In this document: piece by piece, positions 4,750 through 22,024 of the stretch
How positions within the stretch are numbered: position 1 is the first letter of the stretch
Layout: the number at the start of each line of letters is the position of its first letter
Origin: an uncultured Bacillota bacterium
Lineage (GTDB): Bacteria; Bacillota_I; Bacilli_A; RFN20; CAG-826
Assembly: GCA_949293555.1 (NCBI GenBank)
Contig: CASFDV010000002.1
Coordinates: 418,210-482,209, forward strand
DNA: 64,000 nt
Direction: 5' to 3'
Notes under the pieces: model-generated
What the model was told of the DNA's origin: nothing
The model's database searches: none
Seen by the model: only the letters and a program-made list of their open reading frames with translations
Program-made: the position numbers and the translations under genes

Positions 4750-6966
4750 CTAGACCAAGGATCCTGCCTCCTCCTGGAAACGAATGCGCGTCCTTTCGTG
4801 GAAGGCGTCCGGCGCGACCTTGCAGCCTTGAGGGAGGAGGACGCTCCTCAAGGCGGTGCCATCGAAGGCTCCCGAACCGATGAAACGCACGCTGTCAGGG
4901 ATGCGCGCCTTTCGGAGATCCTTGCATTCAAGGAAGGCGCGTTCCCCGATCCGCTCGAGCCCCTTGGGGAGGATGATTTCCTCGACGTCCGAGGCCCCGA
5001 GGAAGAGGGATGCGGGGATTTCTTTTGCCGGTCCGAGCAGACGGATCTTCCGAGGCTGGAAGAAACCCCTGAAGTCGACCCCAGCAAGCTTTTCGAGCCC
5101 TCCTTCGACGATGAGGGTTCGTATGAAGGGGTTCTGGAGGCCCAGCGGTTCGATGCGGGCGACCGTCTTTGGGATGAAAAGGGTCCTTGGCAGGCAGGAG
5201 TCGAGCCAGCAGTCCTTCAGGATCTTCGCCTCCTCCGGGGCGCGCGCGATCTTCCCGACGGCAAGGACGACTGAGTCGTCCTCCTTCCGGAGCAGGAACC
5301 TTCCCGACTTGTCGGTGTAGAAATAAGGATTGTCCTTCGAGACGAGGAGACGCAGGGACCTTCTCGCCCGGACCGAACGGAAGGCGGAGGAGGAAATCCG
5401 CGCGAGGCTCGCGGGGAGAACGACCTTCCCTCCCATGCCGGAGCCGAAGAAGGCCATGTCTTCGATCTCCTTGACGCCCTCGGGCACATGGAGGCCGTGG
5501 AGATCTAGATTGGAGAAGGCGCCGAAGAGGATGGCCTCGGTTCCTTCCGGGATCGTGCCGGTCCCATCTCCCAGGCAAAGCATCGTCCCCTTTCCGTCCA
5601 TGAGGGCGTGCTTCCCCGCCATGCGGTGGCCTTCGCAGCCTTTCTCAAGCCGGATGGAAGAAAGCTCGGGCGGGTCCTCGAAGGCCGTCGTGAAGAAGCG
5701 GAGGGGGACATGGGCGCCTCGCTTCATGACGATCTTCCTGTAGGGAGGGAGAATCGGGTTCCTTCGGCAGCGGAGGTTCCTCGAGGAGACGACGAGCCGT
5801 CTTCCGGGGCGCGCGATCCCGGTAACGACCATCCCGTCCACGCTCTCCAGGCGCTCCGGGAGCTCGAGGAAGGGCGGGATGCGAAGGAAGGCGCCGCGCG
5901 CGATTTTCCTCGCGAGGCCGGGGATCCTGGCGTCATGGGTGGCGTAAACCACGGCGAGGTCCTCCCTCCGGAGGATGACGCCGCTTCCTTCGGGGGAGAG
6001 GAAGGCCTTGTTGTCCGGGGAGACGGAAAGGCTTTTCCTGTCCGTCCCGTCCAGGAACCAGGTGGATTCCATCTCCTCCAGCCCCTTCCCGATATGGACG
6101 GGGCAATGCTTCCGCGGGGAGAGGCCGAGGTATTCGATTTTTCTCACGGGCGAAGGGATTTCGATGGAGGAAGGATGGAGCCCCTCGTAGGAATGGTAGG
6201 CGAGCCCGGTCGCCCATTCGGGGATGATGGCCCTCCCTTCCTCATCGAGGTTTCCGATGAGCACGACCCCATCCTGGTCCGCGTAGACTCCGTCCCGGAA
6301 GAAGGCCTCGCCCCCTTCCTCGTCCGCTTCGATCCGGATGTAGGGACGGGCGATCTCATAGAGGCTGTTTCGGAAGCTGGATCCTGGCAAGCAAGGAGCC
6401 TTCCCTTGGATCCGCACCTCCCGGAGGGAGGGGGATGCGCAGGCGCCATGCTCCATCTCGACATCGGGGTTCTTGAGGACGAGCGTCTGGACCAGGAGCC
6501 CTTTGAGTGCCCCGATTTCGATCTCCTCGACGGACGAGGGGATGACAAGCGTCTTCTTCCTGAGTCCCTTGGGGAAGACGAAGCTTTCGATCTTCCTCGT
6601 CCCCTCGGGGATCGTCCCCAGGCTGAAGAAGAGGACATTTCCCTTCTTCCGGAGGAGCGCCTTGCCGTCCGGGCATTCCAGATAAGGGTTCCTGGGATCG
6701 AGTTCGATCCTGGAGATACATCCTGCCTTGCAGTCGAAGACCTGGAGGCGCCGGACGCCTTTCCCAAGGCGGAGCACCTTGGGGGAGGAGGGTTTCCCGA
6801 GGAAGGAAAGCGAAAGGCGGGCGCGCCCTTGAGGTGCCTCGAACGCGGGATCCCCGTCAATGGCCTCATGGCTAAGGCGCATCCCTGGCCCGTAGTTCCA
6901 TCGGGCGATCTTCCTTTCCCTATTAAGCTTCTCAGGATTCATAGGGGCGTTATCTACATCCTTCAT
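4750..6966 (-). CDS. Leucine-rich-repeat protein, BspA-like (paralogue 1)
   Basis: The 738-aa protein is built of irregular LRR_5/BspA-type repeats of about 23 residues. Recurring cores include IPSSVEEIEIGAL, LPASLARISSSAF and IPDSVRFIGSGAF. There is no signal peptide, lipobox or anchor, so unlike most BspA surface proteins it looks cytoplasmic. It is a full-length paralogue of the next gene upstream, sharing SLSFLGKPSSPKVLRLGK near residue 50 and the segment YADQDGVVLIGNLDEEGRA. Its ATG overlaps the upstream stop (ATGA), so it is the last gene of the MoxR/VWA/MetK-like operon. A binding or recognition role is inferred from the repeat fold and the operon; the ligand is unknown. Confidence 0.8.
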   Translation of the reverse strand: MKDVDNAPMNPEKLNRERKIARWNYGPGMRLSHEAIDGDPAFEAPQGRARLSLSFLGKPSSPKVLRLGKGVRRLQVFDCKAGCISRIELDPRNPYLECPDGKALLRKKGNVLFFSLGTIPEGTRKIESFVFPKGLRKKTLVIPSSVEEIEIGALKGLLVQTLVLKNPDVEMEHGACASPSLREVRIQGKAPCLPGSSFRNSLYEIARPYIRIEADEEGGEAFFRDGVYADQDGVVLIGNLDEEGRAIIPEWATGLAYHSYEGLHPSSIEIPSPVRKIEYLGLSPRKHCPVHIGKGLEEMESTWFLDGTDRKSLSVSPDNKAFLSPEGSGVILRREDLAVVYATHDARIPGLARKIARGAFLRIPPFLELPERLESVDGMVVTGIARPGRRLVVSSRNLRCRRNPILPPYRKIVMKRGAHVPLRFFTTAFEDPPELSSIRLEKGCEGHRMAGKHALMDGKGTMLCLGDGTGTIPEGTEAILFGAFSNLDLHGLHVPEGVKEIEDMAFFGSGMGGKVVLPASLARISSSAFRSVRARRSLRLLVSKDNPYFYTDKSGRFLLRKEDDSVVLAVGKIARAPEEAKILKDCWLDSCLPRTLFIPKTVARIEPLGLQNPFIRTLIVEGGLEKLAGVDFRGFFQPRKIRLLGPAKEIPASLFLGASDVEEIILPKGLERIGERAFLECKDLRKARIPDSVRFIGSGAFDGTALRSVLLPQGCKVAPDAFHERTRIRFQEEAGSLV

Positions 6967-9167
6967 GGTTCTTTTTTAAGATTTCCCTCTTCTTGGAAGC
7001 GCACTCTCGTATATTGTTCGAAGGCCTCCTCGCCGACCTCGCATCCCGCGGGAAGCGTTGCTTTCTTCAGCGCGGTGTTGCAAAAGGCGTAAGGCCCGAT
7101 ATAGCGGATGGTGGAGGGGAAGCTAGCGTCCGTCAGGGTCATGCAATCCGCGAAGGCATTCTCTCCGATTCGCTCGAGTCCTTCCGGGAACGTGACTTTC
7201 CCGACGCGGGAGGCGTCGTAAAAGAGGGAGTCCGGGATTTCCCTGGCAGGGCCAAGCAGGAGGAGGTTCATGATGTCGGCGCTCTCGAAGGCATCCTCCG
7301 CGAACCGTTCGAGCCCTCCTTCCACTGCCACTTCTAGGAAGTACGAGCCCCCCAGGAACTTTCCTTCGACGCGGGTCACGGTCTCGGGAATGAAGAGTTC
7401 CTTCGCGGTGTTCGATTTCAGGGAATGCTCCCGCAGTATCCTGACTTCCGGTGGAATGCGCCGGACGTCCCCGAAGGCGAGGACAAGGGTGTGGTCGTCC
7501 TTCCGGATGAGGCAGGTTCCCGTCTGGTCTACGTAGAAGTAGGGATTGTCGGGCGCGATGGAAAGGCGGGCGCCCGGGACGCCCTTATGTGAGCGGAGGG
7601 CGTTCCCGGAGATCCGCTCCAGGGTGGAGGGGAGATGGACGTGCGCCAGGGCCTCGCATTCGGAGAAAGCGAGGTCCTCGATTTCCTTCACGCCCTCGGG
7701 GACGACGATTTCCTTCGCTTCCGTCCGGTGGAAGGCCCGGAGGGCGATGATCTCCGTCCCTTGCGGGATCGTCCCGCTCCCGTCGCCGCGGCAAAGGACC
7801 CGCCCGTTTCGGTCGAGGAGGGCGTGCTTCCCCGCCAGATGGTGGCCATCGTAGCCTTCCTCCAGGCGGATGGAAGAAAGGGCGGGCGGATCGTTCCAAC
7901 TCTCGGTGAAGAAGCGGACGGGGACGCCCGCGCCTTTCCTCATGAGGATTTTCCGGAAGAAGGGGAGCGAACGGAGGGGGATGGAGCGGAGGTTCTTCGC
8001 ACGGACGATGAGCGTGCCCCTTGTGCTCCCCGAGTCTCGGAAGGCACGGTATTCGATTTTCTCGAGATGCTCGGGCAGCTCGAGGACTTGCGGGGCGCTG
8101 AGGAAGGCGTTCTGCATGATGCTTCTCGTGACCTCGGGGACTTTGCTCCCCGCCTCGGCGTAGACGAGGGCGAGGTCCGCCTTCCGGAGGATGGCGCCCG
8201 ATCCCTTCGGGGAGAGGAAGTATTTGTTCCCCGGATCGACGGAAAAGCCCTGGCCGTCGGTTCCGCCCAGAGGCAACCCCAGGCGGAAGCGCTCGAGCCC
8301 AAGCCCGATATGGAGGGAGCAGCTTTTTCTCGGGAGGAAGCCGCAGTGGTCGATTTCCTTCACGGAGGAGGGGATGTAGACGGAGGTGGGGCGGAGTCCC
8401 TCATAGGAGTGCGCGGAAAGCTTGGTCGCCCATTCGGGGACGATGGCTCCCCCTTCCTCGTCGAGGTTCCCGATGAGGACCACCCCGTCCCGAGTGGCAT
8501 AGACCCCGTCCTGGAAGAAGGCGTCCCCTCCGCTTTCTTCCGTCACGAAGCGGATGAAGGGCGAGGCTTCCGTCCTTTGGCGGAAGCACTCTCCTTCAAG
8601 GGGACAGGCCTTCCCTCGGATGCGCACTTCCTTAAGCGTCTTGGAAGCGAAGCAGCCGTAGCCGAGCCTGACCCTGGGGTTCTCCAGGATCAGGGTGTGG
8701 AGATAGGCTCCCGCGAATGCGGACGGCTTGATTAGCTTCACGGAAGAGGGGATCCGAACGGTCTTCCTGCGGAGGCCGATGGGGAAGGCGTGGGACTCGA
8801 TGACTTTCGTTCCCTCCGGGATCGGGCCCAGGGACATAAGGAGCACCATTCCCTTCTTGCGGAGGAGCGCCTTGCCGTCCTTGCACTCCAAGTGCGGATT
8901 CTCGGGGTCCACCTCGATGCGGGAGACATAGCCTCTCTCCCATGGGCTCACTTCGAACTGGCGCACATTCTTCCCGAGGCGGATCACCTTCGGGCCCGTG
9001 GGCTTTCCCGCTAAATCGAGGGACAGCCTGCTCTTTCCTGCAGGCGACTCGATGACGTTGCTTCCGTTTTCGGCGGTGCGGTAGATCTTCCCGCTGGCAA
9101 TGGAGCGCCATGTGGCGCGAAACGCCTTTTTTCGCTCCATCGCTTGATTCGAAATTCTCTTTTTCAT
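6963..9167 (-). CDS. Leucine-rich-repeat protein, BspA-like (paralogue 2)
   Basis: This 734-aa protein is collinear with its downstream neighbour from the N-terminal SLDLAGKPTGPKVIRLGK block to the C-terminal TRVRFQEEGNL. It consists of BspA-type repeats such as IPSSVKLIKPSAF, LPSTLERISGNAL and FPSTIRYIGPYAF. It too lacks a secretion signal. It starts 18 bases after the MetK-like gene and overlaps the next paralogue by ATGA. The pair probably arose by tandem duplication with divergence spread over the whole length, and each may recognise a different target. The N terminus (MKKRISNQAMERKKAF) is basic. Confidence 0.8.
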   Translation of the reverse strand: MKKRISNQAMERKKAFRATWRSIASGKIYRTAENGSNVIESPAGKSRLSLDLAGKPTGPKVIRLGKNVRQFEVSPWERGYVSRIEVDPENPHLECKDGKALLRKKGMVLLMSLGPIPEGTKVIESHAFPIGLRRKTVRIPSSVKLIKPSAFAGAYLHTLILENPRVRLGYGCFASKTLKEVRIRGKACPLEGECFRQRTEASPFIRFVTEESGGDAFFQDGVYATRDGVVLIGNLDEEGGAIVPEWATKLSAHSYEGLRPTSVYIPSSVKEIDHCGFLPRKSCSLHIGLGLERFRLGLPLGGTDGQGFSVDPGNKYFLSPKGSGAILRKADLALVYAEAGSKVPEVTRSIMQNAFLSAPQVLELPEHLEKIEYRAFRDSGSTRGTLIVRAKNLRSIPLRSLPFFRKILMRKGAGVPVRFFTESWNDPPALSSIRLEEGYDGHHLAGKHALLDRNGRVLCRGDGSGTIPQGTEIIALRAFHRTEAKEIVVPEGVKEIEDLAFSECEALAHVHLPSTLERISGNALRSHKGVPGARLSIAPDNPYFYVDQTGTCLIRKDDHTLVLAFGDVRRIPPEVRILREHSLKSNTAKELFIPETVTRVEGKFLGGSYFLEVAVEGGLERFAEDAFESADIMNLLLLGPAREIPDSLFYDASRVGKVTFPEGLERIGENAFADCMTLTDASFPSTIRYIGPYAFCNTALKKATLPAGCEVGEEAFEQYTRVRFQEEGNLKKEP

Positions 9168-9185
9168 AGGGGATTTGCTGCCTTT

Positions 9186-10277
9186 CTATATGTTCACGTC
9201 CGCGAAGAAGTAGCCTCTCTTCAGGAGGTCCAGCTTCCTGGCCTTTCGGGAGAGGAGCCGCTCGGCCGTCTTCTTGATGTCCAAGGCGGAGGGGCCGATC
9301 CTCTCGCTCGGGATCGCGGCCTTCGTGCCGAACTCGTCCATCATCTCGCAGGACAGGGCGACGGGCTTCCTCTCGCCCGGGCAGTAGGAAGCCTTCAGGA
9401 GGACGCTCCAGGCGCCCGTTTCCTTGAGGAGGCGTATCGCTTCCCTCCTTGCCGCGAAGCTCCCGGCGACGTCGGGCTTCCAGAAGTCCTTGCCGCAGAT
9501 GGCGCCCCCGCCCAGGGGGACTCCCGGCCCGTAGAAGTCGACCGCGAGCTTCTTCCCGGAAAGGCCGTTGTCCCCGTAGGGGCCTCCTTCCCGGAACGGC
9601 ATTCCCCGGTTGAAGAAGAAGCGGGAGAGGGGAAGTTCCTTGAGCGCGTCCATCCTTCCCCCGGGGAGCGAGCGGAGGGCCTCCTGCACTGCCTGATAGG
9701 CAAGCTCGAGGTTCGTCCGGGAGGAAGACTGCCCCCTCTCCTGGGCTGAGAGGATGAGCTTGCCCCATCCTTCCTCCTCCAGCACCGCCAGGAGCTTGAA
9801 GTCCGGCCCCAGGGGGGAGAGGCGGAACTTTTCCTCAAGCCTCCGCCCGAGGTAGTTTGCGAGGTAGTGGGCGAGAGGCATGTAAGAGGTCTCGCCCGTC
9901 CCTTCCGCGTAGCCGACGACCACGCATTGGTCGTCCGCATAGGGGCGGCTTTCCTTCTCCTCCTCTTCGAGAGGATCCCTCTGGATGCGGTCGATGATGC
10001 GGACGCTTCCCGGGTCCGGAGGGCACTCCTTCCCGAAGCCCGCCTCGCGGAACGTCTCGCGCACCGCGCTTCCGACGAGGGAAGGAGGGAGGGGGTCCTC
10101 CCCCTTGCCGGCGGCGATCCTCCCGGTCAGGTAGCACTCGTCCTTGAAGAGGGCGCACTCGAACTGGGCGAAGGCCCGTTCGTCCCTTTCCATCGCGATG
10201 TCCACCAGTCGCTCGACGATCTGGTCGCCCAGGCGGTCCGGGTGGGCCCGGGAGACGTACTCGGCATAGTCCTTCAT
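9186..10277 (-). CDS. Divergent S-adenosylmethionine synthetase homologue (MetK-like)
   Basis: I place the start at ATG 10277, which overlaps the previous stop as ATGA; the open frame further upstream is a shadow of that gene. The 363-aa product keeps MetK landmarks: AHPDRLGDQI at 11-20 (family GHPDK), ADDQCVVVGYA in place of GAGDQG..FGYA, GGPYGDNGLSGKK, and GGGAICGKD near 254-262. The Arg-Lys of GRK is Lys-Lys here, and the C-terminal GHFGR motif is replaced by RGYFFAD. Catalytic His, Asp and the GKD Lys are present, so activity is possible, but it may make or bind SAM or an analogue rather than serve as housekeeping MetK. It sits between a VWA/metallopeptidase gene and two LRR genes, a context unlike housekeeping metK. 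Confidence 0.75.
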   Translation of the reverse strand: MKDYAEYVSRAHPDRLGDQIVERLVDIAMERDERAFAQFECALFKDECYLTGRIAAGKGEDPLPPSLVGSAVRETFREAGFGKECPPDPGSVRIIDRIQRDPLEEEEKESRPYADDQCVVVGYAEGTGETSYMPLAHYLANYLGRRLEEKFRLSPLGPDFKLLAVLEEEGWGKLILSAQERGQSSSRTNLELAYQAVQEALRSLPGGRMDALKELPLSRFFFNRGMPFREGGPYGDNGLSGKKLAVDFYGPGVPLGGGAICGKDFWKPDVAGSFAARREAIRLLKETGAWSVLLKASYCPGERKPVALSCEMMDEFGTKAAIPSERIGPSALDIKKTAERLLSRKARKLDLLKRGYFFADVNI

Positions 10278-11578
10278 TCGAACACCTCCACGTGGCGGAA
10301 TATCCCCGGGAAAGCCTCGACTTGCCTCTCGCCGAAGAGGCCAAGCGCCACCCTCGTCCCCTTGAGGCGCTTTTCCTGCTCTTCCTCGACCTCCCCGAAC
10401 AGCCCGTCGGAGAGGACGAGGAGCCTTCCCGGCCTCCTGGAGGAGGGAAGGGAGAGGAAGTGCTCGAACACCGCCTGGATCGAGGTCGCCCTCGTCGAGG
10501 GGAAGCGTCCCGCGAGGAAGTCCTGGTAGGAAATCTCCTCGACCTCCGAGGAAAAGGCGAAGAGGCGGAGCCTCCCTTCCCGGAAGGGCTCCCGGAGGAG
10601 GGGGAGGAGCTTCTCCACTTGCCCGAGAACGGAGCCGGAGACGTCGAGGTAGACGAGCGCCTCCTCCTTCCTCTCCCGCCGGAGGAGGGGGGACCTCCAG
10701 CTGGAACGATGGAGGAGCGGATCGATCCCGAGCGCCTCGTAGGCCGCTCTCCTCCGGTCCCTGGGGTCCGGGAGGAAGGTCTCCCGCTCCCGCTCTTCCT
10801 CCTCGAGGCGGGAGCGCCACGGCCCCTTGGGCTCCAGGACGAGTCGGAGGAGCTTCCGCATCTTCGCCCTGCCTTTTTTCTCATGGGGGTCCTCGGGGAC
10901 AAGGGAGAGCATCGTCTTGTCCCCGTCGGCGGACCTCCCGACCTTGAGGAGGCCGTCGGGCCAGCCTCCCATCGCCTTCTCCAGCGCCTTCCGGAGCATC
11001 GGGCTGCCCTTCCCGACTCCCCGGTGGTCCCCGATGAGGAGGAAGCCTCCCTCGGGGAGGCCTCCCTCCATCATTTTCCTGACGATGAGGTCGTAGATTT
11101 CCTCGTAGGTGACGTGGTTCCCGAGGTAGAGCGCCTCGACGAGCGCGCGGCAGTCCTCCGGGGTGTCCTCCGCGGCGGGGCGGAGGAGGCAGCCAGGGAA
11201 GGAGCCGCTCGGGTTGTTCCCTTCGAAGAAGGAGCGGAACTCCTCGCCCGGGAAGGCGCGGACGAGGGTGGCGTTGATGACGGCGTCGAAGGCGATGTTG
11301 TCGATTTTCGTGGGATGGAGGAAGAGCCGCGTGTGGCCGAGGAGGGCGTGGTAGAGCTCGTGGAGGACGAGCATGAGGAGGTGCTCGGGGGTCTTGCACC
11401 GCTCCTCGAGGAACTTCGGGTTCAGGAGGAGCTCGGGGCGATCCCCGCAGGTCATGGCCGCGCTATCGACCCTCTTCTCCTCGAAGCGCACGCGGAAGAG
11501 GCGGAGGAACTCCTCCATGTGGAGGGAGTAGCCCGGGATCACCTCGTAGAGGGACCTTACGACGTCTTGCTCGGTCAT
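10274..11578 (-). CDS. Putative metallopeptidase with C-terminal VWA-like domain (DUF2201 type)
   Basis: This 434-aa protein has HELYHALLGH at 73-82, a zinc-peptidase HExxH signature. Its C terminus contains a VWA-like fold beginning YLDVSGSV, the DxSxS metal-adhesion motif, followed by LLVLSDGLFG. The arrangement fits the DUF2201 family of metallopeptidase-VWA proteins that accompany MoxR ATPases. In MoxR-VWA pairs the ATPase remodels or loads the VWA partner; here the partner also carries a peptidase centre. The start ATG 11578 overlaps the previous stop, with AAGGAGG about ten bases upstream. The substrate is unknown. Confidence 0.8.
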   Translation of the reverse strand: MTEQDVVRSLYEVIPGYSLHMEEFLRLFRVRFEEKRVDSAAMTCGDRPELLLNPKFLEERCKTPEHLLMLVLHELYHALLGHTRLFLHPTKIDNIAFDAVINATLVRAFPGEEFRSFFEGNNPSGSFPGCLLRPAAEDTPEDCRALVEALYLGNHVTYEEIYDLIVRKMMEGGLPEGGFLLIGDHRGVGKGSPMLRKALEKAMGGWPDGLLKVGRSADGDKTMLSLVPEDPHEKKGRAKMRKLLRLVLEPKGPWRSRLEEEERERETFLPDPRDRRRAAYEALGIDPLLHRSSWRSPLLRRERKEEALVYLDVSGSVLGQVEKLLPLLREPFREGRLRLFAFSSEVEEISYQDFLAGRFPSTRATSIQAVFEHFLSLPSSRRPGRLLVLSDGLFGEVEEEQEKRLKGTRVALGLFGERQVEAFPGIFRHVEVFE

Positions 11579-11949
11579 CCTTCTATATCCTCCTTCAGGA
11601 AGCACCAGGGGGTGTCGAACCTCGACGTGGCGTAGAGAGGTTCCTTCCCCGGGACGTAGAGCCCGCCGATCGTGCGGGAGAAGACGTTGATGAGGAGGGG
11701 GATGTCGCCGACGAGCTCGTCCCCGGGCCCCTTGGAGACGCTGATGAGGAAGCCCTGGGGGCGCGCCGCCATCTCCTCGGGGTGGGCGAGCGCCCATTCC
11801 CGGGCCGCCTCGTGGAGCTCCTCCTCCTTCTTGCAGCCGAGCAGCCGCCGGAGTTCCTTGGGCGAGAACATCAGGGTCGTCCCCGTCTTCCTGACGTCAA
11901 GCATCTCCCGGGTCCAGCCGGGGCGCCCGATGTTATGGAGGAGGCTCAA
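11575..11949 (-). CDS. Conserved small protein (124 aa) between MoxR and VWA genes
   Basis: The most likely start is TTG at 11949, which overlaps the MoxR stop (TTGA) and has AAGGAGG seven bases upstream. ATG 11904 lacks a ribosome-binding site. The product contains GTTLMFSPKELRRLLGC and FLISVSKGPGDELVGDIP, and ends CFLKEDIEG. I do not recognise the family. It is soluble, and its place between the ATPase and the VWA protein suggests a structural or adaptor subunit. Confidence 0.65.
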   Translation of the reverse strand: MSLLHNIGRPGWTREMLDVRKTGTTLMFSPKELRRLLGCKKEEELHEAAREWALAHPEEMAARPQGFLISVSKGPGDELVGDIPLLINVFSRTIGGLYVPGKEPLYATSRFDTPWCFLKEDIEG

Positions 11950-13319
11950 GCCCGGGCCTCCTTCCAGGCCTTCCGGAAGAACGCGGCGGCCTCCTCGACC
12001 TCGGCTTCTTCCTTGAAGAGGGTGCCCACGCCGCCCTGGAGGTAGTTCCCGAGGAAGGCACCCCAGGGCTCCTTCTCGTCCTGGAGGGCAATCTGGCTCG
12101 CGCGGGAGAGCGCCCGGCTGGTCCAGGGGTTGCTCCTCACTTCCTTCCTCCCGGGGGTGAGGATGGCCTGGACGTCCTCGCGGACGGTCTCCATGAAGAT
12201 GGCGGGGAGGTCCTCCTTCCCGCGGAGGAGGCGGTAGGAGAGGAAGGCGATCGCCCTCCTCTGGCAGGGCGGGAGGCGCCCGATGTCGTCGAGGAGCGTC
12301 TCCGAGAGGAACTGGCTCCCGAGCTCGTCGCGGGAGCGGAGGGCGAGGAGCGCCTGCTGGGCCGGGTCCTTTTCGCGGAGGACCTCCTTCTCGGCGCTGC
12401 TTTCCGAGCGGTTGTACTTCCATGCCTGCTCCACCGCGGCGCTGAGGAAGGGGTAGGAGACTTCCTCGTTGGCGATGTTCGGGATGGCGGAGAGGATGTG
12501 GGAGAAGGAGGCGTCGTAGAGGGATTTCTCGTCCCCGCGGAGCACCCTGAGGGCGGCGTGGACGTAGAGGAGGCTCCTTTCTATCTGGCGCATCCTCCGC
12601 GCGGAGACGTAGCCGATCCTCTCCTGGAGAAGGGGTAGGAGGTCGATGAGGTAGGAGGCGGCCTTCTCCTTCTCCTCCTTCTCGAGGCGGGCGGCTTCTT
12701 CCTTCGTCCTTTCCACGAGGGCAGGGAGGTCGATGGCCTCGGCCTTTTTCCCGAGGAGCATCCTCGCGATGTCCTCCCGTTCGAGCTCGTCGAGCGCGGG
12801 CACCATCATCACGTAGGGGAAGCGGTCCGCGAGGGCCGGGTCGAGGGGATGGGTCCCGAGGTAGCTGGGCCTCGTCCCGTCCTCGTCCTCGCGGTAGGGG
12901 TTCATGGCCGCCCAGCGGTAGCGGAGCCGCGGGAGGTCGATCCCCTGGACCCTCCTCTCGTGGATGATGGGGAAGAGCTTGTTCTGGAGCTCGGGGCGCG
13001 TGCGGTTGACCTCGTCGAAGAAGACGATCTCCGCGTCCCAGACGCTGGTGGCGCAGGGGAGGTAGCTGAGGGCGGTCTTCTCCTCGTTCAGGACGGGGAT
13101 GCCCACGAGGTCGTCGTAGTTGAGGAGGGATGCGTTATAGAAGCGGGAGACGAGCCCGAGGAGACGCGCGAGCTTCTCCAGGAGCTGGCTCTTCGCCGTC
13201 CCGTGGGGCCCGACGAGGAGGACGGGGTCGCCGCTGGCGATCGCCGCCAGGAGCGCCGGCTCGAGGTTGTCCCACCCGTAGAGGCCGAGCGACTCGGCGA
13301 GCTTGATTCTTTCTTCCAT
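11946..13319 (-). CDS. MoxR-type AAA+ ATPase
   Basis: The 457-aa protein carries Walker A GPHGTAKS (37-44), Walker B IVFFDEVNR (about 97-105), sensor AAMNP and arginine-finger segment DPALADRF, all typical of the MoxR group of AAA+ ATPases. MoxR proteins act as hexameric chaperones with VWA-domain partners, matching the downstream VWA/peptidase gene. It is the first clear gene of the minus-strand operon, read away from a WYL regulator. The C-terminal 200 residues are helical and specific to this subgroup. Confidence 0.88.
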   Translation of the reverse strand: MEERIKLAESLGLYGWDNLEPALLAAIASGDPVLLVGPHGTAKSQLLEKLARLLGLVSRFYNASLLNYDDLVGIPVLNEEKTALSYLPCATSVWDAEIVFFDEVNRTRPELQNKLFPIIHERRVQGIDLPRLRYRWAAMNPYREDEDGTRPSYLGTHPLDPALADRFPYVMMVPALDELEREDIARMLLGKKAEAIDLPALVERTKEEAARLEKEEKEKAASYLIDLLPLLQERIGYVSARRMRQIERSLLYVHAALRVLRGDEKSLYDASFSHILSAIPNIANEEVSYPFLSAAVEQAWKYNRSESSAEKEVLREKDPAQQALLALRSRDELGSQFLSETLLDDIGRLPPCQRRAIAFLSYRLLRGKEDLPAIFMETVREDVQAILTPGRKEVRSNPWTSRALSRASQIALQDEKEPWGAFLGNYLQGGVGTLFKEEAEVEEAAAFFRKAWKEARA

Positions 13320-13630
13320 CTTTCTTGTCCTTTCTCCTGTTCCTTCTTGTATTCCTGCAGTTCCTTTATGTCTTTCTAGCTATTCACAGGAATGAGGGGC
13401 ACGAGGCGAGGAAGGATGTAGAGAAGGGAAAGAAGATCCCCTTCCTTGGAGGATATGGGGGAACCCGCCTTCTGGACGGCCACCTTCCGGATTCCCCTTC
13501 CCTGGTTTTTTGTTTTCTTGTAGTCTTCGTATGCCATCGGGTCCCTCGCTTTCCACGCCCTTCCGGCGCACCTAAAGAGTAAGGGTGGTTTTGTTCAATT
13601 TCTTGGCTTTGAGTTTTGGTGTCCAAACAA
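13320..13630. promoter_or_regulatory. Divergent intergenic region between the MoxR operon and the WYL regulator
   Basis: This 311-bp region should hold the promoters of both transcription units and any operator of the WYL protein. I saw no perfect palindrome. The MoxR start is preceded by purine-rich AGGAGAAAGGA on the minus strand. A possible 53-aa minus-strand frame lies inside and is listed separately. Confidence 0.45.
13376..13537 (-). CDS. Possible small protein (53 aa) heading the MoxR operon
   Basis: An open frame from ATG 13537 to TAG 13376-13378 encodes MAYEDYKKTKNQGRGIRKVA and ends PRLVPLIPVNS. GAGGGA stands four bases before the ATG. It precedes MoxR by 57 bases on the same strand. 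Nothing recognisable is seen and it may be chance. Confidence 0.25.
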   Translation of the reverse strand: MAYEDYKKTKNQGRGIRKVAVQKAGSPISSKEGDLLSLLYILPRLVPLIPVNS

Positions 13631-15130
13631 ATGGACAGCAAACGCGAAATTGATGAAACTACCTTTGGAAGCGAATACCGTCAGGGCGCGGAGGTGGATG
13701 CCATGCGGGACATTTTCATGCAGATCATCGAGGTGCTCAGGGGGACGGACCGGGATCATCCCATGACCCAGGGGGAGATCGCCGAGAAGGTGAAAGGTCC
13801 TTCCGGGAAGCCCATCGATAGGAAGACGGTCAACGCGGCTTTCAAAGACCTGAAGGAAGAACTGGACCTCGTCGACCTCAAGAAGCAAGGGTGGTACTTG
13901 GACACGAGGGAGGGGATCTCCTACGAGATGGCCCTCCTCATCGGGGAGGCGATCATGCTTTCCCCCCATATGAGCGAGGCGGACAGGCTGAAGGCCACCG
14001 GCCTCCTTGCAGGGCTTTTCTCCACCTACGACAAGGCCAGGCTCAAGGAGGAGCTCCGCAAGGTCGAAGGTCCTGCCGGCGGGATTCCGGTGAACATCAT
14101 CGAGGACATCCATGAGGCGATCCGCGAGGGACAGCCCCTTCTTATCAAGAGGAAGGATGGTTCGAGGGTGCATCTCTTCCCGCGCTACGTGTTCTACAAG
14201 AAGGAACTCCCTGGGCTTGCCCTTTATGGCTACAAGCCCTTCGGCGTGCCGGAGGGCCTGCCGCTCGATGATATCGAGACGATCGAAGCCCAGGAAATGA
14301 AGGACTACATGAGGGATGAGCGAGGGATCCTTGTCGAAGGCGGGCCCTTCGTGCTGACGATCGACGGGCTTCCGTACTATTCCTTCTCCAAGGAGGAGCT
14401 GACGGAGAAGGAAGCGAAGGCGGCCTTCGCGGACTTCCGCTACTTCCTGGGGAGAAATACGCTTTTCCGGCTCTCTTTTGAAGAGGCGCTGTCCGGACGT
14501 CTCATCGGGAATCTCGCCCGTCTTCCCTTCCGCTATGGGGAGAAGGAGATCCGCCAGCAACTCCAAAGGGATTTGAAGGTATTCTTCTCTTACCTCTTGC
14601 TCAAGGGCGACCTCGACGATAGGAAGGCGAAGGACGTCCGGGCTTGCTTCGCCGAGGCGAGCGCATCCGTGCCCCCTTCTTCCTCAGGCGCCCTGATGAG
14701 CAATCGCCGGATCCTCGACCCCGTGGCATTCGCGCACTTGGTCCGGAGCCCGTTCATCATCAATGGCGACTGGCATCTCTCCGGCTCCGCGGCGAGCATT
14801 CCGGACCGTTATCCCCTTGATGGGGAGACGTTCGGGAACCTGGCGGATTCCATCCAAGGGAAATTCCCCCTCTTGCTAGACTCCCGCGCGTCCAGGCTCA
14901 GGCCCGACTGGTACGCCTATCCTCTTTGCTACTACCTTTACGACAAGGGGCATAGAACTGTCTTTCGGGAAAGATTGCTAAAGTACATCGACTCCTGGGA
15001 CGAAAGGGATCGCGAGGGACGTGCTGCCCTGAGGGCCATGGGCATCTTGCTCACGCGGGTTTTGAAAAGAAAGGTCCTGGCTAGGAAGGCCCTCATTGCC
15101 GCAGAGATTGGGAGCCTTCCAGTGGAATAA
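13631..15130 (+). CDS. WYL-domain transcriptional regulator
   Basis: Starting at ATG 13631 the product is 499 aa; TTG and GTG codons slightly upstream are alternatives, and no Shine-Dalgarno sequence decides. A winged-helix region (about residues 10-95) contains MTQGEIAEKVKG and RKTVNAAFKDLKEEL. A WYL-type ligand-sensing domain follows near 158-220, with IHEAIREGQPLLIKRKDG and LALYGYKPFG. A further ~250 residues at the C terminus have no known match for me. WYL proteins commonly repress or activate phage-defence operons after sensing nucleic acid or nucleotides. The divergent orientation towards the MoxR/VWA/MetK-like/LRR operon makes that operon its likely target. Confidence 0.78.
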   Translation: MDSKREIDETTFGSEYRQGAEVDAMRDIFMQIIEVLRGTDRDHPMTQGEIAEKVKGPSGKPIDRKTVNAAFKDLKEELDLVDLKKQGWYLDTREGISYEMALLIGEAIMLSPHMSEADRLKATGLLAGLFSTYDKARLKEELRKVEGPAGGIPVNIIEDIHEAIREGQPLLIKRKDGSRVHLFPRYVFYKKELPGLALYGYKPFGVPEGLPLDDIETIEAQEMKDYMRDERGILVEGGPFVLTIDGLPYYSFSKEELTEKEAKAAFADFRYFLGRNTLFRLSFEEALSGRLIGNLARLPFRYGEKEIRQQLQRDLKVFFSYLLLKGDLDDRKAKDVRACFAEASASVPPSSSGALMSNRRILDPVAFAHLVRSPFIINGDWHLSGSAASIPDRYPLDGETFGNLADSIQGKFPLLLDSRASRLRPDWYAYPLCYYLYDKGHRTVFRERLLKYIDSWDERDREGRAALRAMGILLTRVLKRKVLARKALIAAEIGSLPVE

Positions 15131-15178
15131 ATGAATTCTCGGATTTCTTGCTAGAACCTAGATGAAATCCTTGATTTC

Positions 15179-16021
15179 CTAGATTGCCGAGACCAGTTTC
15201 TGAAACCGAAGGATGACATCCAGCAGCTCTTCGTTGAAGTACTGGAGGACCTTTTCGGAGGCAAGGGGAAAGCTTTCGGGGCCATAGAAGGCCTCGGCGA
15301 TCGAGCAGGCGATCGCCCCTTCCGTATCGACGTCACCGTGCCTGGCCATCGCGAGGCGAAGGGTGTCCTCGTAGCCTTCCCCCATCAGGAAGCAGGCGAA
15401 GGCGTGGGGGACGGACTTCTCCGCGAGATCGGAGAAAGATCCCGGGAGGGAAAGGAGGAGCGCCCTCTCTTCGATCCCGGGGTAGTAGGAGGACATGTTC
15501 CTCGCGATGGCGTCCTTGCCCTTGCCCATTCTCGCGAGGTAGATGGAGGAGGCGGTCGCGAGCGCCGCCTTCATCCCTTCCTTACCATCATGGGTGACCC
15601 CGGTGACGATCCGCGCGAGGCGGAGCGTCTCCTCGAGGCTTCTTCCGAGCCAGGCGCAGGGGGAGACCCGCATCGCCCCTCCGTTCCCCTCGGAATGGTA
15701 AGGAACACGGCCCTTGCTCCTGACCCATTCCATGAACATGGCTCCGTAGCCCCCGAAGGGGTAGGCCTCGGCGTAGCGGACCAAGCATTCCTTCGTCCTG
15801 GAGGCGAGCCGGGCTTCGTATTCCGTTCCCTCTTCCACTGGCCCTGCCTGGAGGAGGGCGTCCATCACCGCAACGGTGAGGAAGGAGTCGTCGGTCAAAA
15901 ACATGCCGTCCTGGAAGAGAGAGCATCCGTACTCGAGGCTCCCTCCGAACTCCTGGACTGAGCCGTTGATGTCGCCGACGAAGGCCCCGCAGCAGATTTT
16001 CCTTGGCTCGTTCTTGTCCAT
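15179..16021 (-). CDS. ADP-ribosylglycohydrolase family protein (DraG/ARH-like)
   Basis: ATG 16021 is chosen because GGGAGG precedes it by about six bases; the product is 280 aa. The N-terminal CCGAFVGDINGSVQEF corresponds to the family G(A)xGDxxG metal site, and the C-terminal GDVDTEGAIACSIAEAFYG corresponds to the GGDTD(T) metal motif. Such enzymes remove ADP-ribose from proteins or nucleic acids, or hydrolyse related metabolites, using two metal ions. It lies between the WYL regulator and the restriction cluster and is transcribed away from the methyltransferase. No ADP-ribosyltransferase gene is seen nearby, so its partner is unknown. Confidence 0.82.
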   Translation of the reverse strand: MDKNEPRKICCGAFVGDINGSVQEFGGSLEYGCSLFQDGMFLTDDSFLTVAVMDALLQAGPVEEGTEYEARLASRTKECLVRYAEAYPFGGYGAMFMEWVRSKGRVPYHSEGNGGAMRVSPCAWLGRSLEETLRLARIVTGVTHDGKEGMKAALATASSIYLARMGKGKDAIARNMSSYYPGIEERALLLSLPGSFSDLAEKSVPHAFACFLMGEGYEDTLRLAMARHGDVDTEGAIACSIAEAFYGPESFPLASEKVLQYFNEELLDVILRFQKLVSAI

Positions 16022-16194
16022 GGCGCCCTCCCTCTTCCGGAACAGATTGTAGCGAGCGTTTGTCTGATATGCTGGATAGATTGGGTTTCTGTCCAAGAAT
16101 TTGGATAGGCATTGCTATAGCGTGCTAATTTCGCCCGCTTCTTCCGCAGGCTGGATCCTTCCCAGATCCTAAGGATCTTGATAGATTTCGCCAT

Positions 16195-17462
16195 ATGAAG
16201 CCTACGACCGTGGAACTGTTCGCTGGAGTGGGCGGGTTTCGCGTCGGGCTGAACCACGCGCGCCTCATCGAGGGGAAGACCGTCGAGGAACCTCTTTGGG
16301 AAACCCTCTTCATGAACCAATGGGAGCCGGGCTCCAGGAAGCAGGACGCGTTTTCGTGTTATTTGTTAAGATATAATTCCAGAGAGAGAGAGAGAGAGAG
16401 TCTTTAAGGAATGAAGAAGAAGGGGGAGGCACCCTTTTCTCCAACGAGGATATCGCGACGGTTCCCGCGGAGAAGGTGCCGGAGGCCGCCCTTCTGACCG
16501 CGGGCTTTCCCTGCCAGGACTATAGCGTCGCCCGGAAGACCCACGAGGAAATCGGGATCGTCGGGAAGAAGGGCGTCCTCTGGTGGGAGATCGCCCGCAT
16601 CCTGAGGGAAAGGAGGATGCCCTTCCTCCTCTTCGAGAACGTGAACCGGCTGCTCCTATCCCCGAAGAAGCAGAGGGGAAGGGATTTCGCGATCATCCTC
16701 CGCACCCTCGCGGAGCTTGGCTACGAGGCCGAGTGGAGGGTCGTGAACGCATCCGACTACGGCTTCCCCCAGCGAAGGAGGAGGACCTTCCTCCTTTGCT
16801 ACCACGGGAGGACGAGGCTGGCGGAGAGGATGAGGGAGGCCGACGTCATCTCGGAAGGAATCCTTGCCAAGGCGCTTCCGACGGAAGAGGCGAAGGAAGT
16901 CGCCCTCCACGACCTCATGGCGTTCAAGGACCTCGCGGCGGTGAGCGACCTCTTCTCGGGACCCTTCGGGAACGGGGGATATCTTCGGGAGGGGAAGGCG
17001 CACGCCTTCGAGCTCGTCACAAGGAAAGAAGAGCCTCTCCTCCTCAAGGACGTCCTTTTCCACGAAAGGGACGAGAGGCTCTACCTCTCTCCCTCGCAGG
17101 AGGAGAAGTTCGCCTTCCTCAGGGGAGCGAAGAAGATCGTCCGGAAGAGCGCGCTCGGGGAGGAGTACCTCTACCAGGAAGGAAGGATGTCGGAGTACGA
17201 CTCCGCCTATCTTCCTGCCAGGACGATGCTGACGAGCGAAGGCTCCGTGAACCGCTCCTCCCACGTGGTCAAGGACCCCGGGAACGGGAGGCTCCGCTTC
17301 CTTTCCCCGGAGGAGTGCGAGCGGCTGAACGGCTTCCCCGCCGGCTGGACCGACACCGGGATGAGCAAGGGAAGGCGCTACTTCACCATGGGGAACGCCT
17401 TGGTCACGGGGATCGTAGGAAGGATCGGGGATGCCCTCCTTCCGTACGTGAAGGAGGAATGA
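16195..17462 (+). pseudogene. DNA cytosine-5 methyltransferase, frame broken by an (AG)10 tract (probably phase-variable, OFF)
   Basis: From ATG 16195 the frame reads MKPTTVELFAGVGGF, which is methyltransferase motif I, and continues through NQWEPGSRKQDAFS. It then enters twenty bases of pure AG repeat (16381-16400) and stops at TAA 16405-16407. The frame starting at 16401 continues as SLRNEEEGGGTLFSNEDIA and contains the catalytic motif IV GFPCQDYSVA, motif VI LFENVNR and motif VIII QRRRRTFLL, to TGA 17460-17462. Nine or twelve AG units would fuse both parts into about 421 or 423 aa; ten units do not. All C5-methyltransferase motifs are otherwise intact, which favours repeat-mediated switching over decay. 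The downstream endonuclease start lies just after the stop codon. Confidence 0.88.
16381..16400 (+). repeat. (AG)10 microsatellite inside the methyltransferase gene
   Basis: Ten perfect AG units lie within the coding sequence at the break between the two methyltransferase frames. Loss of one unit or gain of two restores the frame. Confidence 0.97.
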
Positions 17463-17464
17463 GC

Positions 17465-18163
17465 ATGGACGGAAGCGAGGCCATGGCGGCGGTCTTCGGA
17501 GCGATCGAGCGCCTCCGCGGGAAAGCCATCGACTCCCTTCCGGGCGCCATTGGGCTCGATCCCAGGGGAAAGGGCTATTTGTCGGGCGCTGCTCGGCGGA
17601 GCATCGAGCTTTCCTTGGGAGGGAAGCAGTTCGGCGCCCTTCTCAAGAAGGCTTCCGCAGAAATGCGGGTACTCACCGGAAAGCGCCGTCCAAACGGGCT
17701 TTTCTTCAAGGAGAATCTTCCGTTTCCAGCGTTTTCGTTCAAGGAGATCGCCCTCACTCCATGGGAAGACTCGGGGCTGAGGAAGACCCTCTCGGAAACC
17801 AACTTCATCCTCGTCCTCCTCGACCCCGTGGACAAGTGCATCGGCTCCGTCCTTCCCCTGAAGATGGACGAGAAGACCCTCGAGGGGAAGGTGAGGGAGG
17901 CCTATCTCCGCACCCAGTCCATCCTTCTTTCCGGGGACATCGTGCGGGAGGCGAAGGAGGGGCGCCATCTTTCGAACTTCCCGGGCGAGGCGGAGAAAGA
18001 AGGGAACCCCGTCCACGTGAGGCCCCATGGGAGAGACTCCAGGGACAGGGACCTCCTTCCTGTGCCGGACCGCCTCACAGGCCTTAAGGATTATCCGCGG
18101 CAGGCCTTCTGGATCAGCCGCTGGTATATGGACTCTTTGCTGAAAGGAGAAGGGAATGGCTGA
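17465..18163 (+). CDS. MutH/Sau3AI-family restriction endonuclease
   Basis: ATG 17465 has AAGGAGG seven bases upstream; an earlier ATG at 17459 is too close to it. The 232-aa product has LDPRGKGYLSGAARRSIEL near the N terminus, then LPFPAFSFKEIALTPWEDS and LRKTLSETNFILVLL. The C terminus has HVRPHGRDSRDRD and the ending QAFWISRWYM. These segments match the MutH/Sau3AI nuclease family. Position directly after a C5 methyltransferase makes it the restriction partner. Sau3AI cuts GATC, but the specificity here cannot be read from sequence. If the methyltransferase is OFF, this gene would need to be silent or coupled. Confidence 0.78.
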   Translation: MDGSEAMAAVFGAIERLRGKAIDSLPGAIGLDPRGKGYLSGAARRSIELSLGGKQFGALLKKASAEMRVLTGKRRPNGLFFKENLPFPAFSFKEIALTPWEDSGLRKTLSETNFILVLLDPVDKCIGSVLPLKMDEKTLEGKVREAYLRTQSILLSGDIVREAKEGRHLSNFPGEAEKEGNPVHVRPHGRDSRDRDLLPVPDRLTGLKDYPRQAFWISRWYMDSLLKGEGNG

Positions 18164-19394
18164 GGATTTGATTATCAGGGGGACGTATCGGATCCGTCCC
18201 ATCGAGAATGAGTTCAAGAGATTTCCGTTCCGGGGGAAATCGGATAACTACCAAGTTTACGAAATCCCGCTGGATGCCATTTTCTACAACGATCTAAACG
18301 GGCGGATCGTCACCATCATCCAGGCGGACGAGGCTCGAAGGGGCAAGAGCGTCGACTACGGGGCCCTTCGCCGAGAGGATCCCGAGGAGTACCAGCGCCG
18401 TTTCGAGGAGTTCATCGAAAAACAGAACCCCGGGAAGCTTCAGGAACTGAGGAGGAACATCGCCCTGTTCGGGCAGCTGGAGCCCGGGATCATCCTGACC
18501 GACGGGCGGATCATCGACGGCAACCGACGGTATACCGCGCTTCGAAAGAACGCCCGCGATTCCGGGGAGACGCTCTTTTTCCACGCCGCCGTGCTTCCCG
18601 CGCCCGAGGCCGAGGACAAGGAGGGCTGGCGCTATATCAAGATGCTTGAGCTCCAGATCGCCCTTGCGAAGATGCAGCCCCTCGAGTACACGCCGATCGC
18701 AAGGCTGGCGGACTTCTATCGAGCGACCAGGGACCCGAACACCGTCGGCCTTCTTTCGTCCAAGGAATACCAAAGGAACGCCGGCATGACGGTTGGGGAC
18801 CTCAAGAAGCTCTCCGACGAGCTCGACATCGCCCTGGACTTCCTCGAATGGAAGGGAACGCCCCTTTCCTTTGAGTACCTGGAACGGAAGGCGATGGACG
18901 GCCCGCTCCGCGAGATCATCAAGTACCGCCGGAAATGGACTGAGGCGGAGTACGAGGGGATGAAATCCTCCATCTACACCTTCCTTGACGAAGGGGACGG
19001 GGATATGACGAGGAAAATCCGGGAGTATCTCAAGTATCTCTGGGATTCCCCTACCGCGAGGGAAAAGGCGAGATCCTTCTCCCTTCCGACTCTCACGGAA
19101 GAAAGGGCGGGCGATGCCCTGGGCAAGGGCGTCTCGGACGAGATGCTCCGCGACGCCGAGGAATCCGTCTTCGTCGATCTCGACTACATTTCCGCGCAAG
19201 GGCTCCTCGATAAGTCGTCGAAAGCCTATAGGGCGCTCAACGATTTCCTCGCCTTCGAGAACATCCGCGCGCTTGGATCCCTGAGCAAGAGCGAGCAGGA
19301 AGAACTGAAGAACCGTCTAAAGGCAATCCGGACGCTTTGCCTGGAGGACCGCGCGCTGGCGCGCTGGGCGTTCGGGGAGGAAGAGAAGGACTAG
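18156..19394 (+). CDS. ParB/Srx-fold protein
   Basis: The 412-aa protein has a ParB-like N-terminal domain: a lead-in YQVYEIPLDAIFYNDLNGRI, then FGQLEPGIILTDGRIIDGNRRYTALR near 106-131, where DGNRR is the family nucleotide/nuclease motif. The C-terminal 230 residues are helical and not recognised. It overlaps the endonuclease end by eight bases and is followed by an overlapping helicase start, with AAAGGAG before its ATG. In this setting it is more likely an effector or DNA-binding subunit of the defence cluster than a chromosome-partition protein. No ParA is present. Confidence 0.75.
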   Translation: MAEDLIIRGTYRIRPIENEFKRFPFRGKSDNYQVYEIPLDAIFYNDLNGRIVTIIQADEARRGKSVDYGALRREDPEEYQRRFEEFIEKQNPGKLQELRRNIALFGQLEPGIILTDGRIIDGNRRYTALRKNARDSGETLFFHAAVLPAPEAEDKEGWRYIKMLELQIALAKMQPLEYTPIARLADFYRATRDPNTVGLLSSKEYQRNAGMTVGDLKKLSDELDIALDFLEWKGTPLSFEYLERKAMDGPLREIIKYRRKWTEAEYEGMKSSIYTFLDEGDGDMTRKIREYLKYLWDSPTAREKARSFSLPTLTEERAGDALGKGVSDEMLRDAEESVFVDLDYISAQGLLDKSSKAYRALNDFLAFENIRALGSLSKSEQEELKNRLKAIRTLCLEDRALARWAFGEEEKD

Positions 19395-21928: not shown

Positions 21929-21965
21929 CGAATTGTTCTCAACGTCAAGATCTATCCATGAATGG

Positions 21966-21995
21966 AAGTTGTAGAATTCTACAAGTTTTCACTAT
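21966..21995 (+). repeat. Left direct repeat with 16-bp palindrome, upstream of DUF4143 ATPase
   Basis: Thirty bases match 23348-23377 with one difference. Inside lies the perfect palindrome TTGTAGAATTCTACAA (21969-21984). Confidence 0.9.
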
Positions 21996-22018: not shown

Positions 22019-22024
22019 ATCCCC

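What the first reader, a model, noticed from the sequence alone, without database searches (positions are those of the whole stretch)
4750..15130. Candidate new conflict system: WYL / MoxR / 124-aa / HExxH-VWA / MetK-like / two LRR proteins
Six genes on one strand overlap or nearly touch, with a divergent WYL regulator. MoxR plus VWA is a known chaperone pair. Adding a zinc-peptidase centre, a SAM-synthetase homologue and two large cytoplasmic LRR proteins makes a set I do not know as a described system. WYL regulators often control phage defence, and the locus abuts a restriction island. A possible logic is LRR proteins as sensors, MoxR/VWA-peptidase as remodelling effector, and the MetK-like enzyme making or sensing SAM or an analogue. 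That logic is inference.
Basis: inference. Interest (0 to 1): 0.85.

Follow-up and report, generated by a model that had tools for sequence, protein, structure and literature searches.

The report
MoxR–VWA module with altered SAM-synthetase
A mobile bacterial gene cluster pairs a protein-remodelling motor with a relative of the enzyme that makes SAM, whose methionine pocket looks rebuilt, hinting at a new adenosine-based chemistry in bacterial conflict.

Summary
The genes are real: MoxR, a 124-aa protein, an HExxH–VWA protein, a MetK-like protein and two LRR proteins on one strand, junctions overlapping 4 nt or 18 nt apart, plus a divergent gene. The 'WYL' label failed profile tests. The order MoxR–p124–VWA–MetK-like recurs in three genera of two families; a fourth genus in a third family shows VWA–MetK-like at a contig end. 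A VWA profile hits strongly in 7 of 279 genomes of the order. MetK-like genes occur in 5 of 274, always beside this VWA gene, with a wide score gap to ordinary MetK (603 against 159 bits). Housekeeping metK lies elsewhere. The LRR pair occurs only in two sister species; other lineages carry a macro-domain, ADP-ribosylglycohydrolase or HD protein. The module moves between families and species. All five MetK-like proteins keep ATP-site residues but replace methionine contacts (E55R, Q98D/E, I102 lost); E55 is kept in 49 of 49 other MetK rows that cover it. Best reading: a MoxR–VWA conflict or stress module whose MetK-like enzyme adenosylates something other than methionine. Defence is untested. 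It is a new variant of MoxR–vWA systems; I found no description of this enzyme partner.

The parts
11946..13319 (-). MoxR-type AAA+ ATPase (457 aa), core
   Evidence: AAA_5 E 8.4e-16, bpMoxR 27.6 bits at cut-off 27; homologues in 8 loci
11575..11949 (-). p124, small protein of unknown fold, probable adaptor (inferred), core
   Evidence: TTG start overlapping the MoxR stop; homologues in 7 of 8 loci where its place is visible; no PDB fold match
10274..11578 (-). zincin-like HExxH plus VWA protein (434 aa), core
   Evidence: VWA_CoxE above cut-off; HExxH in 8 of 8 full-length homologues, DxSGS in 9 of 9
9186..10277 (-). MetK-like enzyme (363 aa) with kept ATP-site and replaced methionine-site residues, core
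6963..9167 (-). LRR_5 protein 2 (734 aa), lineage-specific accessory
   Evidence: LRR_5 E 8.2e-41; within the system only in window and G032
4750..6966 (-). LRR_5 protein 1 (738 aa), 50% identical to protein 2, lineage-specific accessory
   Evidence: LRR_5 E 2.7e-25
13616..15130 (+). divergent gene (504 aa), possible regulator; WYL not confirmed

Best explanation
The locus is a horizontally moving MoxR-VWA-centred conflict or stress module. Shown: a four-gene core (MoxR ATPase, p124, zincin-VWA protein, MetK-like enzyme) keeps its order across genera and families, and the MetK-like enzyme keeps the ATP-site residues of SAM synthetase while its methionine contacts are replaced. Inferred: the MoxR hexamer with the VWA protein, and p124 as adaptor, forms an ATP-driven switch that remodels or cleaves a target and thereby sets the MetK-like enzyme free or holds it in check. 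Inferred: that enzyme lets an acceptor other than methionine attack C5' of ATP, giving an adenosylated product that acts as a signal, a modification, or a drain on ATP. Inferred: lineage-specific partners (LRR pair here; macro-domain or ADP-ribosylglycohydrolase elsewhere) sense the trigger or clear the product. The whole is most likely directed against mobile elements, which is not shown.
For: Core gene order is conserved in window/G032, G044 and G142; in G067 VWA and MetK-like are visible at a contig end. MetK-like genes were found in 5 of 274 genomes of the order, each next to this VWA gene. Patchy: strong VWA hits in 7 of 279, and in the other draws only G315 and G523 are added. Transfer between families: MetK-like of G142 (family f1) is 70% identical to that of G067 (f5) and 37% to the window's (f1), while housekeeping MetK gives 57% and 56%. 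Exchange between species: against G032, housekeeping DNA is 90%, the system 93.0%, the neighbouring island 96.4%. Purifying selection: dN/dS 0.17-0.44 in seven genes. Residues: H14, D16, D118, D163, K165, F230, D238, K245, K265, K269, D271 kept 5 of 5; E55R 5 of 5, Q98D/E 5 of 5, I102 lost 5 of 5, against E, Q and I in 29 of 29 distinct ordinary MetKs and E55 in 20 of 20 further rows that cover it, Q98 and I102 in 21 of 22. Roles of E55, Q98 and I102 in methionine binding: PMC3853416 (passages) and PMC1282579 (passages). Defence-like neighbours: window, Cas9-CRISPR at G142, DndD fragment and DndE at G315.
Against: No function was measured. Archaeal SAM synthetases bind methionine with other residues (PMC3853416), so lost E55 and Q98 do not prove a new substrate. 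One truncated ordinary second copy (L040, 301 aa) also shows E at 98 and V at 102. Q98 and I102 lie beside alignment gaps. The AlphaFold model is of middling confidence (mean pLDDT 67.9) and gave no residue geometry. MetK-like is absent from G315, G523, G122 and G123, so the MoxR-VWA part exists without it in 4 of 9 genomes. I recognised no defence neighbour at G044 (read by eye), and G523's neighbour had no PADLOC match. No background rate for defence neighbours was computed. The core has no PADLOC match beyond weak AAA hits, and the VWA protein has no match in plasmids or phages.
Confidence: 0.45

Rival explanations
1. The MetK-like enzyme is a divergent but true SAM synthetase that gives a defence or stress module its own SAM supply, for instance for methylation in the neighbouring restriction island or to escape SAM-degrading phage enzymes.
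For: MAT fold and ATP-site residues kept; restriction-like neighbours in the window; a phage metK with a methyltransferase gene downstream shows that mobile elements carry metK; archaeal MATs bind methionine by other residues.
Against: E55R and Q98D/E in 5 of 5 and loss of the I102 stretch; no methyltransferase gene seen as a shared member of the recurrent loci by reading their ORFs.
Confidence: 0.25
2. The MoxR-VWA pair is a maturation chaperone (like NorQ-NorD or CoxD-CoxE) for a metal or cofactor enzyme, and the MetK-like protein makes or loads a specialised cofactor; no conflict role.
For: Characterised MoxR-VWA pairs insert metals or remodel enzymes (listings and passages).
Against: I saw no cofactor enzyme shared by the loci; patchy and transferred.
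Confidence: 0.12
3. Only MoxR-p124-VWA is the functional unit; MetK-like, LRR, macro and other genes are exchangeable cargo with unrelated jobs.
For: G315 and G523 have MoxR-p122-VWA without MetK-like; G122 and G123 have an HD protein instead; an LRR gene and a homologue of the divergent gene stand alone in G018.
Against: MetK-like was found nowhere else in the 274 genomes searched, and its start overlaps or abuts the VWA stop in window, G044 and G142.
Confidence: 0.15
4. Chance neighbours in a genome island.
For: Only two sister species share all seven genes.
Against: Four-gene order in three genera of two families at 32-48% identity.
Confidence: 0.03

Closest known systems
MoxR-vWA-centred ternary conflict systems (VMAP, iSTAND, FtsH, beta-propeller; Kaur et al. 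2020, PMC7159879, passages read)
   Same: MoxR ATPase and VWA partner with exchangeable genes; nucleotide- and ADP-ribose-related enzymes among partners; bpMoxR profile matches just over its cut-off.
   Different: No VMAP, iSTAND or beta-propeller component found in the window's genes; the VWA part is C-terminal behind a zincin-like domain instead of carrying C-terminal effectors; the partner is MetK-like ('MetK' and 'AdoMet' do not occur in that paper's main text); found here in small-genome Bacillota.
DUF2201 (putative metallopeptidase plus VWA-like) family with a MoxR gene
   Same: N-terminal HExxH part, VWA part, MoxR gene alongside.
   Different: Of six proteins of the present family scanned, one (L060) passes the DUF2201_N cut-off and none matches the DUF2201 VWA-like model; those of G576 and G286 match both.
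Methionine adenosyltransferase (MetK)
   Same: Fold, HPD motif, ATP-site residues.
   Different: E55R, Q98D/E, I102 loss, K17R, R244K; shorter C-terminus; separate deep clade; 92.9 bits against an equivalog cut-off of 309.4.
SAM-AMP signalling of type III CRISPR (PMC12255297, listing and start of abstract only)
   Same: A signal built from ATP and SAM in defence.
   Different: There the CRISPR Cas10 subunit makes it; I saw no such gene in the loci read. Analogy only.

Membership tests
MoxR-vWA ternary conflict systems | MoxR AAA+ ATPase | tested here: met
   AAA_5 E 8.4e-16; bpMoxR 27.6 bits against 27
MoxR-vWA ternary conflict systems | VWA domain with metal-site motif | tested here: met
   VWA_CoxE 27.4 bits against 26.4 in the window protein, above cut-off also in L061, below or absent in L036, L058, L060, L067; DxSGS in 9 of 9
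MoxR-vWA ternary conflict systems | third component of a known type (VMAP, iSTAND, FtsH, beta-propeller) | tested here: not met
   No such match in p124, MetK-like, LRR or divergent protein by Pfam, NCBIfam or PADLOC; G142 alone has an AAA plus M41 peptidase gene upstream
MoxR-vWA ternary conflict systems | effector domains C-terminal to the VWA domain | tested here: not met
   VWA match 342-481 of 507 in the ORF read ends near its C-terminus; extra part is N-terminal
DUF2201 metallopeptidase-VWA family | DUF2201_N and DUF2201 profiles over their cut-offs | tested here: not met
   Window 19.1 bits against 23.2; of six scanned only L060 passes DUF2201_N; none matches PF09967
DUF2201 metallopeptidase-VWA family | HExxH motif followed by VWA | tested here: met
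   8 of 8 full-length homologues; G067 is cut before the motif
Methionine adenosyltransferase | fold and ATP/catalytic residues | tested here: met
   R244 is K and K17 is R; model matches MAT structures, TM about 0.58
Methionine adenosyltransferase | methionine-binding residues E55, Q98, I102 of the bacterial enzyme | tested here: not met
   5 of 5 changed; Q98 and I102 stand beside gaps
Methionine adenosyltransferase | SAM formation | not testable with these tools
   needs an assay
WYL-domain regulator | PF13280 match | tested here: not met
   None in P0007 at E<=0.05 nor in all of G000 at E<=0.001, although the model rings in 3 of 13 genomes of the genus
Anti-phage defence system | protection against phage or plasmid | not testable with these tools
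   Only genomic context:

The most novel reading that the evidence does not exclude
The MetK-like proteins are members of an undescribed adenosyltransferase family that uses SAM-synthetase chemistry on an acceptor other than methionine, producing a new adenosylated signal or modification gated by a MoxR-VWA peptidase in an anti-mobile-element system, with macro-domain or ADP-ribosylglycohydrolase partners removing the product.
Probability: 0.25. Interest if true: 0.88.

Novelty: new variant of a known kind. Interest (0 to 1): 0.62.

Why it matters
MoxR-VWA pairs are widespread chaperone switches whose outputs are often unknown. A conserved partner with the SAM-synthetase fold, kept ATP-site residues and a rebuilt acceptor site gives a concrete, testable enzymatic output. 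If the product is not SAM, it would be a new reaction for a fold that PMC1282579 (passages) treats as the main, possibly the only, route to SAM, and perhaps a new immune signal. If it is SAM, it would show a defence-type module that carries its own SAM supply.

Tried and rejected
Rejected: housekeeping metK in a chance cluster. Rejected: recent duplicate of metK; the five MetK-like rows are split from the 34 other rows at 100/100, though long branches were flagged there. Rejected as a general feature: 'two LRR proteins', since the ORFs read at G044 and G142 show none beside the core. Not supported: WYL. Led nowhere: p124 fold search in PDB (best E 9.3); VWA in plasmids and phages (no match); viral contigs with VWA and MetK profiles (none, one weak 23% locus whose ORFs were only listed); genome-contig scan with MetK-like (the sister species and a Pelagibacteraceae record at 26%, whose MetK keeps E55 and Q98); profile of the divergent gene's family against the 466-aa G142 protein (probability 41%, undecided). 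Tblastn of MetK-like in plasmids and phages found records at 26-31% in the rows listed, mostly annotated as ordinary metK, not followed further except H26 and H35. Second MetK copies of G004, G029, G038 and G050 keep E55 and Q98. Second or fragmentary copies of G056, G024, G015 and G037 had been dropped by the filter and were added: those that cover site 55 keep E; a truncated copy of G024 (L040) has E at 98 and V at 102; the G056 copy has W at 230, the G037 fragment Q at 165. The regions fetched around these copies had no MoxR, VWA, p124 or LRR match by tblastn at E<=1e-3. Literature: I did not find a MoxR-VWA-MetK association in the searches, which cover only an open-licence library and, in the longer lists, only the rows shown.
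Full report
OBSERVATION. The window is G000:C2:418210-482209 of a 1.34-Mb, six-contig genome; the nearest named record, 96% identical in the MetK-like protein, is titled 'uncultured Firmicutes bacterium' (CASEPN010000001.1). On the minus strand lie MoxR (11946-13319), p124 (11575-11949, TTG start overlapping the MoxR stop), an HExxH-VWA protein (10274-11578), a MetK-like protein (9186-10277) and two LRR_5 proteins (6963-9167 and 4750-6966, 50% identical to each other). By coordinates four junctions overlap by 4 nt and one has an 18-nt gap. A divergent gene lies at 13616-15130. Pfam supports the MoxR, VWA, SAM-synthetase and LRR_5 assignments, and only weakly the metallopeptidase part. The WYL label is not supported: no Pfam family for this protein, and PF13280 finds nothing in the whole genome. 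By eye the gene has a helix-turn-helix-like start; that is recall, not a test.

RECURRENCE. The sister species G032 has all seven genes; six are 93.6-95.9% identical, the divergent one 53%. A VWA profile (A1) over 279 genomes of the order gives 10 genomes at E<=0.001, of which seven are strong: G000, G032, G044, G142, G067, G122, G123. Over 395 genomes of the class it adds G315 and G523 as strong hits; a phylum draw of 392 and a second class draw of 394 add none, and the 43 genomes of the G315 order add three weak hits. These draws overlap. A MetK-like profile (A8) over 274 genomes of the order gives five hits at 603-646 bits (G142, G044, G067, G032, G000); the next is 158.8 bits, and that protein (L082) has ordinary residues. 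All five lie directly downstream of this VWA gene. G315, G523, G122 and G123 have only matches of 126-135 bits. So 5 of 9 genomes with a strong VWA hit carry MetK-like. In the VWA tree G315 and G523 group with MetK-bearing systems while G122 and G123 are the outer pair, so MetK-like may have been lost in the former (midpoint root, long branches flagged).

GENE ORDER. G044: MoxR, p124, VWA, MetK-like, then a macro-domain gene 29 nt on (Pfam Macro E 3.3e-8). G142: MoxR, a 152-aa p124 homologue, VWA, MetK-like; upstream on the same strand an ADP-ribosylglycohydrolase (E 6.5e-36), a HAD_SAK_2 plus FtsK_gamma protein, an AAA plus Peptidase_M41 protein and a 466-aa protein without Pfam match. G067: VWA cut by the contig end, MetK-like, an FtsK-like gene and a 445-aa protein without a Pfam match. 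G315 and G523: MoxR, p122, VWA, no MetK-like beside them. G122: MoxR, p136, VWA; G123: MoxR and VWA overlapping, with no room for p124; both have an HD-like protein and a 128-aa HTH_3 protein nearby (the protein of G122 matches HD_4 at E 0.0056, below cut-off, that of G123 has no Pfam match; their likeness to ppGpp hydrolases is recalled). p124 is thus seen in 7 of 8 loci where its place is visible; the most distant (G122) is supported by hhalign E 8.6e-6. So the full four-gene order stands in three genera of two families, and VWA-MetK-like in a fourth genus of a third family. The large LRR pair occurs only in the window and G032; G315 has a 179-aa LRR_5 gene upstream of MoxR, and LRR_5 proteins are common in these genomes (candidates).

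MOBILITY AND SELECTION. MetK-like of G142 (family f1) is 70% identical to that of G067 (f5) but 37% to that of the window (f1); housekeeping MetK gives 57% and 56%. VWA behaves alike: 72% and 39%. This indicates transfer between families. Between the window and G032, an 18-kb housekeeping stretch is 90.4% identical and the far flank 89.8%, the system 93.0% and the adjoining island (15200-33012) 96.4%, so the region has probably been exchanged between the species. dN/dS between the two is 0.17-0.44 for the seven genes; the divergent gene has dS 1.02 against 0.05-0.19 for the others, which suggests allelic replacement.

CONTEXT. Window: PADLOC type IV restriction enzyme E 6.5e-137 (23396-27793), PbeA-like N-terminus plus SNF2 helicase (19337-21928), weak type II restriction match (16583-18163), PDC-S01 E 3.8e-98 (21962-23323). 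G142: a repeat array with 66-nt period, 30 copies in the stretch read, then Cas9 and Cas1. G315: DndD fragment and DndE. G067: the FtsK-like gene matches mads_8 at E 1.7e-15. G044: none recognised by eye. G523: no PADLOC match of the neighbour. G122 and G123 were scanned only in part. I did not compute how often such neighbours occur by chance.

THE METK-LIKE ENZYME. In an alignment with E. coli MetK (L109; crystal numbering = full length minus 1) and 33 other MetK rows, 29 of them distinct (28 from chromosomal loci, including second copies, and one phage), the five MetK-like proteins keep H14, D16, D118, D163, K165, F230, D238, K245, K265, K269 and D271. They differ in 5 of 5 at E55 (R), Q98 (D or E), I102 (gap), K17 (R) and R244 (K); 29 of 29 distinct others keep E55, Q98, I102, K17 and R244. 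That set had lost some copies to a motif filter; 22 further rows, those included, were then added (two of them repeat genes, L083 = L006 and L115 = L135): E55 is kept in 20 of 20 that cover it, Q98 and I102 in 21 of 22, the exception being a truncated second copy of G024. E55 contacts the methionine amino group, Q98 and K269 its carboxylate, and I102 its side chain (PMC3853416, passages; see also PMC1282579, passages). E55R stands in an ungapped stretch; Q98 and I102 are next to gaps, so those two are less sure. PMC3853416 also says that archaeal enzymes bind methionine with other residues, so the change does not by itself prove a new substrate. A profile search finds MAT structures (best E 9e-37); the predicted model has mean pLDDT 67.9 and matches MAT with TM near 0.58. 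The NCBIfam metK equivalog scores 92.9 against a cut-off of 309.4. The five form one side of the tree at 100/100 with a long branch.

MECHANISM (inferred). MoxR with VWA works as an ATP-driven remodelling pair in known cases (NorQ-NorD, CoxD-CoxE, RavA-ViaA; abstract starts, passages) and as a threshold switch in predicted conflict systems (PMC7159879 and PMC8195603, passages). The present VWA protein adds an HExxH part, so cleavage of a target is plausible. The MetK-like enzyme, encoded last in the core, is the likeliest output. The swapped charges at the acceptor site suggest an acceptor other than methionine, or methionine in another pose. Two lineages add enzymes of ADP-ribose chemistry, which fits a nucleotide product, but n is two and they differ in kind and position. 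The LRR pair may sense the trigger in this lineage; G018 carries an LRR gene and a homologue of the divergent gene side by side, with no core gene seen among the ORFs of its 18.5-kb contig, so these may be a separate unit.

KNOWN OR NEW. It works like, but was not shown to belong to, the MoxR-vWA ternary systems: the third components and C-terminal effectors that mark them were tested and not met. It is not a member of the metK equivalog family by its cut-off. I found no description of a MoxR-VWA-MetK set in the open-licence library; subscription papers were mostly not covered. Genomes of other phyla were reached only by the genome-contig scan, whose peptide patterns find close relatives, so the true range is unknown.

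Noticed in passing
L106 (G018:C1) 13134-17464: HTH_3 gene, a 794-aa LRR_5 protein and a homologue of the window's divergent gene lie together, with no MoxR, VWA or MetK-like gene seen on the contig: a possible separate LRR-regulator unit.
   Followed up: partly
L061 5147-9667 and L060 9094-13304: Outgroup MoxR-VWA systems (p136 in L061 only) lie beside an HD-like protein that resembles ppGpp hydrolases (recalled) and a 128-aa HTH_3 protein, in place of MetK-like.
   Followed up: partly
L058 12270-18983 and L130 2476-7400: G142 locus: ADP-ribosylglycohydrolase, HAD_SAK_2/FtsK_gamma, AAA-M41 protein (PADLOC IetA match) between the core and a 66-nt-period CRISPR array with Cas9 and Cas1.
   Followed up: partly
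window 13616-15130 against L033 5136-6671: The divergent gene has dS 1.02 between sister species while its neighbours have 0.05-0.19, a sign of allelic replacement.
   Followed up: partly
window 16583-27793: Two large proteins (19337-21928, 23396-27793) share PbeA-type PADLOC matches, one with an SNF2 helicase, one over a type IV restriction model; with 16583-19394 they may form one restriction system.
   Followed up: no
L008, L010, L012, L014, L039, L040: Several relatives carry a second, often shorter metK with mostly ordinary methionine-site residues; the G056 copy (L039) has W instead of F at 230, the G024 copy (L040) is truncated.
   Followed up: partly
L111 (Streptococcus phage Javan244) 1501-2538: A phage metK followed by an adenine methyltransferase gene; 79 of 106 phage records with a MetK match have names beginning with 'Streptococcus'.
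   Followed up: no
L067 693-1354: DndD C-terminal fragment and DndE directly downstream of a MetK-less MoxR-p122-VWA set.
   Followed up: no
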